Source: Pirellulales bacterium (lineage in GTDB: Bacteria > Planctomycetota > Planctomycetia > Pirellulales > Thermoguttaceae). From it: a stretch of DNA of 16,415 nt. The DNA lies in contig JAUWWA010000002.1 in assembly GCA_030617125.1 (NCBI GenBank), positions 1 through 16,415 of the forward strand. Direction: 5' to 3'. Shown one piece after another: positions 11,717-16,415 of the stretch. The notes under the pieces are model-generated. The model was not told the origin of the DNA, ran no database searches, and saw nothing but the letters and a program-made list of their open reading frames with translations. The translations under genes were made by a program, and so were the position numbers. How positions within the stretch are numbered: position 1 is the stretch's first letter; every line of letters begins with the position of its first letter.

Positions 11717-11806
11717 CTCCGGTGTCCACGCCGAGAAAACGCGCCACCGTGCCGATGGCGGCTAGACCGACACGGAATGCTCCCTGTGCTTCGGCTTGCC
11801 GCGCGG

Positions 11807-11825
11807 TATAATTGGTGAGAAAGGA
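11807..11825 (+). promoter_or_regulatory. -10 element and ribosome site of nadA
   Basis: TATAAT at 11807-11812 is a perfect -10 hexamer; the -35 region at 17-nt spacing (CTGTGC) is weak. AAGGA at 11821-11825 lies 9 nt before ATG 11835 and decides that start over the in-frame TTG at 11796. The promoter would start transcription near 11819, leaving a very short leader that just includes the ribosome site. Confidence 0.5.
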
Positions 11826-11834
11826 CTCGGCACG

Positions 11835-12980
11835 ATGACGCTGACTACCGAGCAGACCAAGGCGCCCGCCTTCGAACTCCAACCGTACAAATCACTCGAG
11901 GATGAGGTGCTCCTCGAGCGGATCGAGAAGGTCCGCGCCGAGATGGACCCCCGGCTGTTGATCCTTGGCCACCACTACATGCAGGACCAGGTGATCGCAC
12001 AGGCCGACCTGCGCGGCGACAGCTATCGCCTCAGCGCACTGGCGGCCGAGGACGAGGACTGCGAGGCGATTGTCTTCTGCGGCGTGCACTTCATGGCCGA
12101 GACGGCCGACATCCTGGCCAACCGGCCCGAGCGGCTCGCCGGGCGCGGCGGCCGCCGGGTGTGCGTCTCGCTGCCGGACGCCGACGCCGGTTGCTCGCTG
12201 GCCGACATGCTCGACATCGAGCAGGTCGAGGACTGCTGGCGGCAGCTTGCCGAGGTGATCGATATCGACGACGTCACGCCGATCACGTACATCAACTCGA
12301 AGGCCGCGCTGAAGGCGTTTTGCGGCCGGCACGGCGGTATCGTCTGCACGTCGGCCAACGCGGCCGCGGCGCTCGACTGGGCACTGAAGCGGCGCGACCA
12401 CGCGCTCTTTTTTCCCGATCAGCACCTCGGGCGCAACACTGCGAGAACGATGGGATTTACACCCGAGCGGATGCCCGTGTGGAACCCCCGCGAGTTCGAA
12501 CTCGGCGGCAACACACGTGAGGCAATCGTACAAAGCCGCGTGATTTTGTGGCGGGGTCATTGCGGCATCCACCAGATGTTCCGCGTGGAAGACGTCGATC
12601 GCTTCCGCGCAAGGTACCCTGATATCAAGGTGATCGTCCATCCTGAGTGCAAGATGGAAGTGGTCGACAAGGCCGACGTGAGCGGCTCGACGGGCCAGAT
12701 CATCCGTGCGATCGAGGAGTCGCCGCCGGGTACTCGCTGGGCCGTCGGCACCGAGTTGAACATGGTCAACCGGCTGCGGCATGAGCATCCCGAGCAGGAA
12801 ATCTACTTTCTCTCATCGATGGTCGCCGTCTGCCCGACGATGTTCCGCATCGACCTTGCCCACCTGTGCTGGTCGCTGGAGAACCTGGCGGCCGGCACGC
12901 CGGTGAACGTCGTCCGCGTCGACGACGAAACGGCCCGCTGGGCCCTTAAGGCCCTCAAGCGGATGCTCGAGGTGAAATGA
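11835..12980 (+). CDS. nadA: quinolinate synthase A
   Basis: The protein has 381 residues. It condenses iminoaspartate with dihydroxyacetone phosphate to quinolinate in de novo NAD synthesis. Family motifs are clear: LGHHYMQDQV (44-53), GDSYRLS (61-67), FCGVHFMAETADIL (81-94), CTSANA (171-176), VHPEC (268-272) and GTELNMVNRL (305-314). The three [4Fe-4S] ligands are probably Cys120 (AGCSLAD), Cys243 (WRGHCGIH) and Cys333 (VAVCPTM). Their spacing (123 and 90) matches the long Bacillus-type NadA (Cys110/230/320) rather than the E. coli type. It is cytoplasmic and oxygen-sensitive. No nadB, nadC or NadR-like regulator is visible, so the partner genes must be elsewhere. A Shine-Dalgarno (AGGAGG, 12983-12988) directly after the stop has no convincing gene behind it. 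Confidence 0.95.
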   Translation: MTLTTEQTKAPAFELQPYKSLEDEVLLERIEKVRAEMDPRLLILGHHYMQDQVIAQADLRGDSYRLSALAAEDEDCEAIVFCGVHFMAETADILANRPERLAGRGGRRVCVSLPDADAGCSLADMLDIEQVEDCWRQLAEVIDIDDVTPITYINSKAALKAFCGRHGGIVCTSANAAAALDWALKRRDHALFFPDQHLGRNTARTMGFTPERMPVWNPREFELGGNTREAIVQSRVILWRGHCGIHQMFRVEDVDRFRARYPDIKVIVHPECKMEVVDKADVSGSTGQIIRAIEESPPGTRWAVGTELNMVNRLRHEHPEQEIYFLSSMVAVCPTMFRIDLAHLCWSLENLAAGTPVNVVRVDDETARWALKALKRMLEVK

Positions 12981-13055: not shown

Positions 13056-13403
13056 TCACGCCTCACCCTGCCCGAGCAACACCACCATTTGTTTGTGAAG
13101 CGTGGGTAGGTCGCGCTGCACAATATCCCAAACAACCCGCTCGTCGACAGCGTCGTAGCCGTGGATCAGGATGTTTCGGAATGCGACGATCCGCCGATAC
13201 TCGCTGATGTGGGAAGCTAGCGCGGGATCGGCTTTAGCAAGCCGATTCAACGCTTCACCTATGATTTCAAATTGCCGTTCGACACCGGATTGCAGCAGTG
13301 TGTCAGAGGAGTACTGCTCAAAGCCTTTGCCGGCAGTGAACCGAAGAATGCACTCCGCCGCCTGTCGGATGTCTTCGACGTGCTTTTTCGATTCAAGCGG
13401 CAT
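13056..13403 (-). CDS. hepT: HepT-like ribonuclease toxin (DUF86)
   Basis: The protein has 115 residues from ATG 13403, reading PLESKKHVEDIRQAAECILR after Met. The frame is open further upstream, but that part lies in the antitoxin gene and has no family character. The HEPN motif R-x4-H-x-Y is intact: Arg76, His81 and Tyr83 in RNILIHGY. HepT proteins are HEPN RNases that dimerise; their cognate MNT partner silences them by adding AMP units to the motif Tyr. The helix 'FEIIGEALNRLAK' (45-57) is also typical. The start overlaps the antitoxin end by 11 nt, the usual arrangement, and translation is probably coupled. It converges on nadA with a 75-bp gap. The toxin looks functional. Confidence 0.9.
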   Translation of the reverse strand: MPLESKKHVEDIRQAAECILRFTAGKGFEQYSSDTLLQSGVERQFEIIGEALNRLAKADPALASHISEYRRIVAFRNILIHGYDAVDERVVWDIVQRDLPTLHKQMVVLLGQGEA

Positions 13404-13701
13404 ATAACACCGTTCGGGTCCTGTTGACCGATTCGAGGAAATACGGGTTCTTGATCGCCTCCGGCATGACGAGATCAATCGGCCTGGCAAACAGAGCGTG
13501 AAGCGATTCCAGCAAACCGAAATAGGCATCGGCGTATTCGCCCGGCTTCAATGGCAGGAACTCGACCAGGAAGTCGAGATCGCTGGTCTCCGAGTCAAAA
13601 TCGTCTCCGGCGGCGGAGCCGAACACCTCCAGCCGTGCGATGTGGTTCCGCATGCACAATTCGTTCAGGGTCTGGCGGTTCTCTTCAATCAAGCGAATCA
13701 T
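13393..13701 (-). CDS. mntA: MNT-type nucleotidyltransferase antitoxin (MntA-like)
   Basis: The protein has 102 residues from ATG 13701. An earlier frame extends to 13782, but the promoter found at 13760-13732 would start transcription near 13725, which excludes the upstream starts. Catalytic features are FGSAAGDDFDSETSDLD: Gly28-Ser29, then Asp41 and Asp43 after 11 residues, and a third acidic residue Asp76 in RPIDLV. These bind Mg and ATP. MNT antitoxins modify the HepT tyrosine with AMP and so neutralise it. Length, order and overlap with hepT match described MntA-HepT modules. There is no strong Shine-Dalgarno (only GGA near 13706). Confidence 0.88.
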   Translation of the reverse strand: MIRLIEENRQTLNELCMRNHIARLEVFGSAAGDDFDSETSDLDFLVEFLPLKPGEYADAYFGLLESLHALFARPIDLVMPEAIKNPYFLESVNRTRTVLYAA

Positions 13702-13731
13702 GATTCCGTACCGTGGAGGAAGTAACAACAT

Positions 13732-13760
13732 ATTGTATACGGTTGCGGAGGTTTGTTCAA
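13732..13760 (-). promoter_or_regulatory. promoter of the MNT-HepT operon
   Basis: The minus strand has TTGAAC (13760-13755), a spacer of exactly 17 nt, and TACAAT (13737-13732), a good sigma70-like match. Transcription would begin near 13725, 24 nt before the antitoxin ATG. Confidence 0.6.
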
Positions 13761-13946
13761 TCGCAGTGGCGAACTCATCCACTCATGTTTCCATTGTAGC
13801 ATCGGTCGCCGGCTTACAGCCTGCTGCTGGCCATGTCTTGTGTAGCGAAATAACTCCCCGGCATGATTCCCGGCGGGCGGCAAAGTTGCTATGATTCTTG
13901 GGTGTCCGTCTGATGTAGGAGTTCGATTCCATTGAGGCGTTGCGCC
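13761..13946 (+). promoter_or_regulatory. divergent intergenic region with promoter and ribosome site for the AmmeMemoRadiSam gene
   Basis: TGCTATGAT (13887-13895) is an extended -10, with TTCCCG (13867-13872) 17 nt before its hexamer. GAGG at 13934-13937 is 9 nt upstream of ATG 13947. The predicted leader is about 45 nt. The rest of the region holds no gene I can recognise. Confidence 0.5.
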
Positions 13947-16415
13947 ATGCCACATGTCGTCACCTTGCCACCGGAAGGGGGGCCGGATGCCGATGGGGCC
14001 ATGCCGGCCGGGTCGTGGCACGAGTCGCAGGAAGACCCCCAGCGGCTCATCTGCGATGTTTGCCCCCGCGGCTGCTCGCTGCGGTCGGGTGATCGGGGAT
14101 TCTGTTTTGTCCGCGAGAACCGCGACGGGCGGATCGTCTCGACCACCTACGGCCGCAGCACCGGCTTCTGCATCGACCCAATCGAGAAGAAGCCGCTCAG
14201 CCACTTCTACCCCGGCACGGCAGTGCTCTCGTTCGGCACGGCCGGGTGCAACCTTGGGTGCAAGTTCTGCCAGAACTGGACGATGTCGCGCTCCCGCGAC
14301 GTCGACGCCGCCTGCGAAACGGCCGATCCGGAAACCATTGCCCGGGCCGCCGTCGAATTGGGCTGCCGCAGCGTCGCCTTCACCTACAACGACCCGATCG
14401 TTTTCGCCGAGTACGCCATCGACACCGCCCGAGCGTGCCGCGAGGCGGGCGTGAAGACCGTGGCCGTCACGTCCGGATACATCAACCCCGCCTGCCGCGA
14501 AACTTTCTTTCAGGACATGGACGCCGCCAACATCGACCTCAAAGGTTTTACGGAGGACTTCTACCGGGAGTATTGTGGCGCCCGCTTGGAACCGGTGCTC
14601 GATACCCTGCGGTGGCTCGCTCGCGAGACGAACGTCTGGATCGAGATCACCAACCTGGTCATCCCGCAGGCGAACGACTCCAGTGATGATCTGAAGCGGA
14701 TGTGTGAGTGGATCGTCGACGAACTGGGACCCGACGTACCGGTGCACTTTTCGGCGTTTCATCCCGACTTCAAGGTGACCGATCGCGGGGCGACGCCGAT
14801 CTCGACGCTGTTGACGGCCCACGACATTGCCCGGCGTGCCGGCTTACACTACGTTTACACGGGCAACGTCAGCGACCGCGAGCACCAGTGCACCTATTGT
14901 CCCAAATGTGGGCGGATGGCGATCGAGCGCGACGGCTATGCCGTGGGCGCCGTTCATTTGCGAGAAGGCCGCTGCGAGTATTGCGACGAACCGATCGCCG
15001 GCCGCTTCGACGCCGAGCCGGGCGACTGGGGCGGCCGACGCATGCCCGTGCGCATCGCCTCGTACGCCAAACCCAAGAATCCCGCCAATCCATCTAACGG
15101 ATCGGGCCTCTCTGCCAAGGAGGAAACAAACGTGAAACGCCAAGAGCCGAATCAACCAGAGTCGCCCTCGCGAAGCGACAGGCCGGCACTGAGCGAACAG
15201 CAGGAGGCGATGATCTTCCACGCGGCGGGCCGTCGGGTCGCCGCGGCGGTGACCTCGCGGTCGGCCGAGCCAATGGACGACGTACTGGCCGAGGTGGCCG
15301 ACACACCGCTCTACGGCGCCTTCGTCAGCCTCAAGCGCGGCGGCCAACTGCGAAGCTGCTGCGGCTACCTGGGCCAGTCGATCCCACTGGGCGAGGCGCT
15401 CGATCGTGCGTCGGTCCGCGCGGCAATGGAAGACCCTCGCTTCCCGCCCATTTCGCCAAGCGAATTGGATCATCTCGACATGGAGGTCTGGCTGTTGTGG
15501 GGGCTCGAGCCGATCACCGCCCGGGGCAAGGACCGCATCAAGGCGATTACCATCGGTAAGCACGGGCTGCAAATCACCCGAGGGCTCTCCCGGGGGTTGT
15601 TGCTGCCCGGTGTGGCCGTGGAACACAACCTCGACGCAAAGGCCTTCCTGCAACAGGTCTGCCTAAAGGCCGGTTTGCCCACCGACGCCTGGCTCGACGA
15701 CGACACCAACGTGATGACCTTTGAGGGCTATGCCATCCGGGGTCGGTTGCGCGGGGGCGAGACCAACGAAGAGGCCCCGCCCAACGGCCCGACCCGCGCT
15801 GAAGTCGCCGCATTGGCCGACTACTGCCGCGCGAACCTCGTCGCGTTGTTCCAGCGCGCCACGCCGAACTTCTACCAGCCCGACGCGTTCGACGGCAGCG
15901 TCAACGCCCTGGCCTTGACCGTCGGTGAACCGCCCGACGTCGCGGTCCAATGCAGCCGACTTTCGTTGCGGCCGCCACTGCCCCTGCAATCGACACTCTT
16001 CACGTTGGTGCAAGGAGCCTCCGGGGAACTTGGCTCCGCGCGAGTCGATCCGAGCGCGTTGCAGACGATGCACGTCGGGCTCAGTGTGCTCATGGATCCG
16101 GCGATGCACGGCACCGCCGCCGCGCCGGTACTCGAAGGTGTTGATCCGCGGCATCGGGCGATCCTGGTTACCGGCCCCTCACGCGCCGCCTGGGTATACA
16201 ATCCCCAGCGAACCGCCGAGCAGTTGCTCAGCGAGGCACTCGAAGCGGGCAAGTTCACTGACCTGTCCGCCACGCGCGTGTTCAGCCTGGCCGTCGTTTC
16301 GACCGAGCCGAGTATGACGGTCGCTCAGATGCCTCGAGCTGAGTCGGGATCGGACGTACGGCCGGCGAGCGTGGCCGGCATGTTCTATCCCGGCACTCCC
16401 GAGGAGATCGATCGC
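13947..16415 (+). CDS. fused AmmeMemoRadiSam protein: radical SAM - AMMECR1 - AMMECR1-like - Memo (3' end outside window)
   Basis: One frame of 823 codons has no stop and runs off the edge. I followed it codon by codon. Residues 1-375 are the AmrS-type radical SAM enzyme: N-terminal Cys36/39/43 (CDVCPRGC) and Cys53, the SAM cluster motif Cys101-x3-Cys105-x2-Cys108 (GCNLGCKFC), TYNDPIVFAEY, IDLKGF, SAFHPDFK, and a zinc-ribbon end with Cys318/321/343/346. Residues about 376-395 are a polar linker. Residues about 410-595 are AMMECR1 (AmrA): GAFVSLKRGGQLRSCCGYLG with Cys471-Cys472, DPRFPPIS and LLPGVAVEH. Residues about 620-795 resemble a second, diverged AMMECR1-like unit. From about 805 the Memo domain (AmrB) begins with RPASVAGMFYPG. 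The three parts define the AmmeMemoRadiSam system (TIGR04335-04337), widespread and of unknown substrate; Memo is related to LigB-type dioxygenases. An internal ribosome site precedes codon 396. The start fits GAGG upstream. Confidence 0.92.
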   Translation, partial: MPHVVTLPPEGGPDADGAMPAGSWHESQEDPQRLICDVCPRGCSLRSGDRGFCFVRENRDGRIVSTTYGRSTGFCIDPIEKKPLSHFYPGTAVLSFGTAGCNLGCKFCQNWTMSRSRDVDAACETADPETIARAAVELGCRSVAFTYNDPIVFAEYAIDTARACREAGVKTVAVTSGYINPACRETFFQDMDAANIDLKGFTEDFYREYCGARLEPVLDTLRWLARETNVWIEITNLVIPQANDSSDDLKRMCEWIVDELGPDVPVHFSAFHPDFKVTDRGATPISTLLTAHDIARRAGLHYVYTGNVSDREHQCTYCPKCGRMAIERDGYAVGAVHLREGRCEYCDEPIAGRFDAEPGDWGGRRMPVRIASYAKPKNPANPSNGSGLSAKEETNVKRQEPNQPESPSRSDRPALSEQQEAMIFHAAGRRVAAAVTSRSAEPMDDVLAEVADTPLYGAFVSLKRGGQLRSCCGYLGQSIPLGEALDRASVRAAMEDPRFPPISPSELDHLDMEVWLLWGLEPITARGKDRIKAITIGKHGLQITRGLSRGLLLPGVAVEHNLDAKAFLQQVCLKAGLPTDAWLDDDTNVMTFEGYAIRGRLRGGETNEEAPPNGPTRAEVAALADYCRANLVALFQRATPNFYQPDAFDGSVNALALTVGEPPDVAVQCSRLSLRPPLPLQSTLFTLVQGASGELGSARVDPSALQTMHVGLSVLMDPAMHGTAAAPVLEGVDPRHRAILVTGPSRAAWVYNPQRTAEQLLSEALEAGKFTDLSATRVFSLAVVSTEPSMTVAQMPRAESGSDVRPASVAGMFYPGTPEEIDR
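15117..15134 (+). promoter_or_regulatory. internal Shine-Dalgarno and in-frame GTG at the radical SAM/AMMECR1 junction
   Basis: AAGGAGG (15117-15123), 8 nt, then GTG (15132-15134), which is codon 396 of the fusion frame. This is the best-placed ribosome site of the locus, much better than the one before codon 1. Initiation here would yield an AMMECR1-Memo protein without the radical SAM part, beginning VKRQEPNQPESPSRSD and reaching the AMMECR1 domain after about 15 residues. Confidence 0.65.

What the first reader, a model, noticed from the sequence alone, without database searches (positions are those of the whole stretch)
13947..16415. All three AmmeMemoRadiSam components in one continuous reading frame
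Seen: 823 uninterrupted codons containing the radical SAM Cx3CxxC motif, the AMMECR1 core and the Memo N-terminus in that order. Known: these components (AmrS, AmrA, AmrB) are normally separate genes, sometimes with A and B fused, and their joint reaction is unknown. Inference: the fusion implies a stable 1:1:1 complex and fixes the partners physically, which helps in assigning the pathway. The order rS-A-B may mirror the order of action.
Basis: partly seen in the sequence, partly recalled or inferred. Interest (0 to 1): 0.8.

Follow-up and report, generated by a model that had tools for sequence, protein, structure and literature searches.

The report
Four-domain fused enzyme with internal start
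One planctomycete gene really does fuse all three parts of an uncharacterised enzyme system, but it also hides a fourth, worn-out copy of one part and a conserved internal start signal that may let the same gene make a second, shorter protein.

Summary
In detail: 13947-16415 is one 823-codon frame with complete rS (TIGR04337) and A (TIGR04335) domains. It ends with the contig, about 20 residues into Memo; the rest of Memo starts another contig of the same genome in frame (C70; TIGR04336 239.8 bits). The triple fusion is common in this class of planctomycetes (46 complete fused frames among fetched loci; 11 single-contig genomes), so it is neither artefact nor rarity.

Two things were missed. 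(1) Between A and B lies a domain that no Pfam or NCBIfam AMMECR1 model recognises: a degenerate second AMMECR1 (A'; profile E about 1e-5, AlphaFold pLDDT 95, the three AMMECR1 crystal structures the only strong fold matches). The protein is rS-A-A'-B. (2) The disordered rS/A seam carries an in-frame Shine-Dalgarno and start codon (here AAGGAGG-8 nt-GTG); over 35 genes its mean strength exceeds all 500 sets of each null, and it is invariant in 14 genes of one genus. The gene probably yields a separate A-A'-B chain too; no protein data show this.

"Stable 1:1:1 complex" and "order of action" are not supported. The reaction stays unknown.

The parts
13947..16415 (+). Open frame of the fused gene rS-A-A'-B, cut by the contig end inside B
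   Evidence: continuation on contig C70
14028..15056 (+). rS: AmmeMemoRadiSam radical SAM enzyme domain (aa 28-370)
   Evidence: TIGR04337 569.1 bits, cut-off 220
14052..14105 (+). N-terminal cysteine motif CDVCPRGC...C of rS (aa 36-53)
   Evidence: position; the four Cys columns at least 90% conserved in 66 fused proteins
14247..14279 (+). Radical SAM CxxxCxxC motif, CNLGCKFCQNW
   Evidence: the three Cys invariant in 66 fused proteins
14889..15002 (+). C-terminal cysteine pairs of rS (CTYCPKC ... CEYC)
   Evidence: P0001 columns C318, C321, C343, C346 invariant in 66 fused proteins
15060..15179 (+). Linker (seam) between rS and A, aa 372-411
   Evidence: equivalent stretch 377-420 of P0001 has pLDDT under 50; least conserved stretch of those compared
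15117..15123 (+). Internal Shine-Dalgarno-like AAGGAGG
   Evidence: anti-SD energy -11.2 kcal/mol
15132..15134 (+). Internal in-frame GTG, proposed start of a separate A-A'-B chain (aa 396)
   Evidence: homologous spot lies at the start of the separate A-B gene in sister L004
15222..15728 (+). A: AMMECR1 domain (aa 426-594)
   Evidence: TIGR04335 130.5 bits, cut-off 99; PF01871
15348..15374 (+). A-domain loop LRSCCGYLG (LRGCIG in the three solved AMMECR1 structures)
   Evidence: R, first C and G invariant in 66 fused proteins
15774..16340 (+). A': degenerate second AMMECR1-fold domain (aa 610-798)
16356..16415 (+). B: first 20 residues of the Memo domain, up to the contig end
   Evidence: rest on contig C70

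Best explanation
Shown: the gene encodes a four-domain protein, radical SAM enzyme (rS) - AMMECR1 (A) - degenerate AMMECR1 (A') - Memo (B), of about 1070 residues, split here over two contigs. Motifs of rS, A and B are intact across the fused family. A' has the AMMECR1 fold in prediction but has lost A's conserved loop and most of its conserved positions. rS is predicted to hang on a flexible linker, while A, A' and B follow one another without a stretch below pLDDT 50. Inferred (most likely): the linker carries a working internal ribosome-binding site and start codon, so one mRNA gives full-length rS-A-A'-B and additional free A-A'-B. Inferred (less sure): rS works like a glycyl-radical-enzyme activase. 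It uses its 5'-deoxyadenosyl radical on the conserved loop of A (LRSCCG), in cis over the tether or in trans on free A-A'-B, and the modified A then acts with the metal site of Memo on an unknown substrate. A' is a structural spacer or pseudo-partner that holds A against B, not a second active site.
Against: No translation or protein data were available. For the window gene alone the internal SD is not significant (15% of synonymous shuffles as strong). Much of the SD signal already follows from the amino acids (synonymous null -5.5), and counted as genes at -8 or below, 13 of 35, 4 of 500 synonymous sets have as many. Met density in the linkers (2.6%) is only a little above that of the folded A-to-B part (2.07%). 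38 of 195 linkers have no Met, and several genes (L075, L079, L101, L106, L138) have no site stronger than -3.5. The 14 genes with the invariant site are close relatives of one genus, some near-identical there. A first hhalign test with only the closest 119 proteins and the window found no A/A' similarity. A' does have its own conserved residues (N, D, Q and several G at 95% or more), so a binding role is possible. A' is absent or undetected in some fused and split relatives, so it is dispensable. No assay shows what rS, A or B do; the activase idea rests on relatedness alone, and rS scores far below activase cut-offs.
Confidence: 0.55

Rival explanations
1. Only full-length protein is made; the seam start codon and SD are leftovers of the time when A-(A')-B was a separate gene, and the fusion works as an obligate single chain.
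For: The nearest row on the tree, L004 (support 85), has separate rS and A-B genes with the A-B start at the homologous spot; fused and split forms interchange on the tree (11 changes), so some fusions may be recent.
Against: The site is invariant at synonymous positions in 14 genes of one genus whose Gly codons otherwise all vary, and its mean strength exceeds nulls in 35 diverged genes; a relic in a fast-changing linker should decay.
Confidence: 0.33
2. A' is an independent ligand- or RNA-binding domain with its own function, not a passive spacer.
For: Own conserved set (N, GATP, DG.V.G, PLQ.TL, DPAMHGT); dN/dS below 1 in all 80 pairs.
Against: No invariant residue among 196 columns in 66 fused proteins, lowest identity of the four domains, absent or undetected in several relatives.
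Confidence: 0.25
3. Assembly or sequencing artefact, or a sporadic fusion in one MAG.
For: The contig ends inside the gene and the genome is 68% complete.
Against: One match spanning the protein in 40 of 297 class genomes, 11 of them single contigs (18 of the 40 rows count a stop, but in the 14 of these checked the frame runs through B); 46 complete fused frames among fetched loci.
Confidence: 0.01

Closest known systems
AmmeMemoRadiSam system (TIGR04337, TIGR04335, TIGR04336)
   Same: All three curated components above cut-off, counting contig C70 or relative P0001 for B
   Different: One polypeptide, order rS-A-A'-B, an extra degenerate AMMECR1, an internal start; elsewhere separate genes or B-A fusions
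AMMECR1 structures 1vaj, 1zq7, 1wsc
   Different: A' lacks the LRxCxG loop and passes no Pfam or NCBIfam cut-off
Human MEMO1 (7kq8; PMC11081632, passages read)
   Different: Here the C-terminal part of a multidomain bacterial protein
Pyruvate formate-lyase activating enzyme (3c8f, 3cb8)
   Different: rS scores far below activase cut-offs (50 against 231.75 bits), has extra N- and C-terminal cysteine motifs, and the partner A has the AMMECR1 fold, not that of a glycyl radical enzyme
Memo-AMMECR1-radical SAM contexts, Burroughs et al. 2019 (JBC, not held; cited in PMC7159879 and PMC7694686, passages read)
   Same: Same functional association
   Different: Could not check whether the planctomycete fusion or A' is described there

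Membership tests
TIGR04337 AmmeMemoSam_rS | score at or above 220 bits | tested here: met
   569.1 bits
TIGR04337 AmmeMemoSam_rS | radical SAM CxxxCxxC | tested here: met
   aa 101-108
TIGR04335 AmmeMemoSam_A / PF01871 (domain A) | score at or above 99 / 25 bits | tested here: met
   130.5 and 134.6 bits
TIGR04336 AmmeMemoSam_B / PF01875 (domain B) | score at or above 26 / 27 bits | tested here: met
   on contig C70, 239.8 and 179.9 bits; not reached in the window itself, which holds 20 residues
MEMO1-type metal site | His, His, Cys iron ligands | tested here: met
   aligned in C70 to 3bcz H49, H81, C244 (chain index plus 4; ligands from PMC11081632); equivalent columns invariant in 66 fused proteins; metal binding itself not tested
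AMMECR1 family (domain A') | score above Pfam or NCBIfam cut-off | tested here: not met
   no AMMECR1 model hits aa 603-800 in NCBIfam; one PF01871 stretch per protein, in A only
AMMECR1 family (domain A') | LRxCxG loop | tested here: not met
   R, C and G columns replaced
AMMECR1 fold (domain A') | structural match to solved AMMECR1 | tested here: met
   predicted model
Glycyl radical enzyme activases | TIGR02493 / TIGR02494 cut-off | tested here: not met
   50 of 231.75 and 49.9 of 174.35 bits
Glycyl radical enzyme activases | forms a glycyl radical on a partner | not testable with these tools
   needs EPR
Genes with internal in-frame translation start | SD and start codon inside the frame, above chance | tested here: met
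   (as a mean over the family; the window gene alone is not significant)
Genes with internal in-frame translation start | shorter protein observed | not testable with these tools
   no proteome or ribosome profiling data available here

The most novel reading that the evidence does not exclude
One gene encodes two working forms of an uncharacterised radical SAM system: a tethered rS-A-A'-B and, from a conserved internal ribosome-binding site, a surplus A-A'-B. The catalytic activator is thus made in less than equal amount to its target, which would mean that A (or A-A'-B) is the thing activated by rS. A' is a pseudo-enzyme copy that replaces the second subunit of an ancestral A dimer.
Probability: 0.3. 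Interest if true: 0.7.

Novelty: new variant of a known kind. Interest (0 to 1): 0.5.

Why it matters
The system includes bacterial relatives of two human proteins linked to disease (AMMECR1, MEMO1), and its reaction is unknown. A single gene with all parts gives a ready-made expression construct. If the internal start is real, its stoichiometry suggests which part is catalyst and which is target. A' is a domain that Pfam and NCBIfam left unannotated in the proteins scanned here and that occurs in over two hundred of the sequences compared; it offers a natural test of which AMMECR1 surfaces matter for binding rather than catalysis.

Tried and rejected
Artefact: rejected. A' unrelated to AMMECR1: my first profile test with the closest 119 proteins and the window was negative; a deeper one was positive and the fold agrees. 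Stand-alone A' proteins: none at E up to 1e-3 among 1269 candidates of 0.55-1.75 times its length (word-based, so not exhaustive). A' elsewhere in the phylum: 16 of 391 genomes, the window's own among them, all of the same class or nearer (a sample, and other phyla were not searched). Conserved neighbours that would name a pathway: none in 24 loci. One family in 3 loci was the maximum, and most of the two-locus families printed were synteny between two genomes of one genus (15 largest families printed). A' under no constraint: rejected, dN/dS below 1 in 80 of 80 pairs, median 0.53 against 0.24-0.29 for the other domains; dS is near saturation and L003/L033 are the same record, so ratios are rough. 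Fission or fusion direction: not resolved; quick tree with long branches and weak forks. I first wrote (checkpoint note) that MEMO1 Cys244 is replaced here; recounting the alignment (chain index plus 4) shows it aligns to the conserved Cys of MCG, so that note is wrong. A note gives the internal GTG as 15134 and the SD one base late; one search gives 15132-15134 and 15117-15123. The full-length fold search listed no A' row; that tests nothing. Papers: in the listings of searches I saw no title or abstract start about the fusion, A' or the seam start. Lists 19 (30 of 162), 82 (20 of 240) and 95 (10 of 18) were capped, and the five papers that hold the word AmmeMemoRadiSam were not opened. The key paper (Burroughs 2019) is not held, so absence from print is not shown. 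Its abstract, as I recall it, links Memo to nucleotide-base and isoprenoid modification.

Full report
Observation. The frame 13947-16415 is open for 823 codons and is cut by the end of its contig, which is the whole window. It holds TIGR04337 (rS, aa 28-370) and TIGR04335 (A, aa 426-594), both above cut-off. Memo is represented by about 20 residues only and no Memo model reaches the window. In the same 68%-complete genome, contig C70 begins in frame with a further 248 residues of Memo and then a stop; TIGR04336 scores 239.8 bits there. Against the complete relative P0001 the window protein covers residues 4-837 and C70 covers 837-1086. I compared the two contigs but did not join them; a seed search found no shared 12-mer near the two ends.

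How common. A protein search listed its 120 best of 1728 hits. Of these 120, 117 carry PF04055, PF01871 and PF01875 (876-1130 residues). Where a source names the organism it is Pirellulales, Thermoguttaceae or Rhodopirellula, and once Candidatus Nealsonbacteria. Several carry JGI names that list rS, B and a third term cut off in the listing. With the 113 new proteins of a second search, the window and ORFs from fetched loci, a domain scan of 261 matching sequences gives 198 rS-A-A'-B, 38 A-A'-B, 8 rS-A-B, 6 A-B and 11 partial or rS-only. Of 297 class genomes searched, 98 match at all (some only by a generic radical SAM hit) and 40 have one match spanning residues 30 or less to 1083 or more of P0001; 11 of these are single contigs. 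In 18 of the 40 rows a stop is counted; 14 of the 18 were checked and the frame runs through B. Among loci scanned, 46 genomes carry a complete rS-A-A'-B frame (L003 and L033 counted once). Of 40 relatives 29 match. The fusion is therefore real, widespread and ordinary for this class.

The seam. The full-length model of P0001 (66 rows) has pLDDT 89.4 and pTM 0.64; residues 377-420 between rS and A are below 50, while A, A' and B follow without such a gap (lowest ten-residue mean between A and A' 72). In the window this seam contains AAGGAGG at 15117-15123, eight bases, and an in-frame GTG at 15132. L004, paired with the window on the tree (support 85), has separate rS and A-B genes, and its A-B gene starts at the homologous EETNV sequence with an SD-like stretch. 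To test whether this is chance I took the best anti-SD energy at in-frame start codons of the seam in 54 genes. The mean is -7.2, against -2.6 and -0.6 in the other frames, and 0 of 100 synonymous sets are as low. In 35 dereplicated genes it is -6.92; synonymous shuffles give -5.50 and codon permutations -4.56, with 0 of 500 sets as low in either case; counted as genes at -8 or below (13), 4 of 500 synonymous and 0 of 500 permuted sets have as many. Equal windows elsewhere in the same frames give -4.80, again 0 of 500. The starts of 14 separate A..B genes average -6.83, range 0 to -11.8 (L005 and L042 are one record). In 14 fused genes of one genus the string AG-AAA-GGT-N10-ATG is invariant, although only 35 of 600 invariant-residue columns keep one codon; the Gly codon is the only such one among 59, while 7 of 27 Lys columns do so. 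Some of these 14 are near-identical at the seam. Linkers hold 187 Met in 7182 residues (157 of 194 proteins with at least one), against 20 in 3231 and 5 in 1355 in the other two junctions, but 2.07% in the folded A-to-B part. Against this reading: the window's own site is not significant alone (15% of synonymous shuffles as strong), some genes lack a site, and 38 of 195 linkers have no Met. I read this as a maintained internal translation start, not proven.

Order of action: other bacteria fuse B-A with rS separate (L011, L024, L026, L122, L125, L126), so order carries little weight. A stable 1:1:1 complex is not implied, given the tether, the seam start and 11 fused/split and 9 A'-presence changes on the rS tree (93 rows, quick method, weak forks; rows with no known A partner left out of the second count). 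Gene neighbourhood gives no pathway hint (24 loci).

Literature. In the search listings (three of them capped) I saw nothing about the fusion, A' or the seam start, but most listed papers were not opened and the main comparative paper on Memo is not held. The eLife 2020 paper PMC7159879 (two passages read) only mentions Memo-Ammecr1 systems.

Noticed in passing
L142 126-1466 (contig C371 of the same genome): A second, stand-alone rS paralogue (446 aa, about 42% identical) with an N-terminal stretch that by eye looks like a Tat signal, so the genome may have a cytosolic fused and an exported rS.
   Followed up: partly
window 13059-13782, minus strand: HepT-like ribonuclease and nucleotidyltransferase pair (probable toxin-antitoxin type module) divergent from the fused gene.
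   Followed up: partly
window 11796-12977: Quinolinate synthase NadA lies upstream on the same strand; no neighbour family shared with the window was among those printed for 24 loci.
   Followed up: partly
L004 6110-6235: The gap between the split rS and A-B genes of the window's nearest relative contains, by eye, a perfect palindrome (GTTGGGGTGGCAGTT-c-AACTGCCACCCCAAC), possibly a small repeat that split the fused gene.
   Followed up: no
L119 1630-3132: One genome (G239) has an rS frame followed directly by a piece of A' without A (501 aa), while a match covering A and beyond lies on another contig.
   Followed up: no
window 15062-15190: Third-position GC is 0.63 in the seam against 0.81 over the whole frame, as might be expected if the seam is under other constraints.
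   Followed up: no
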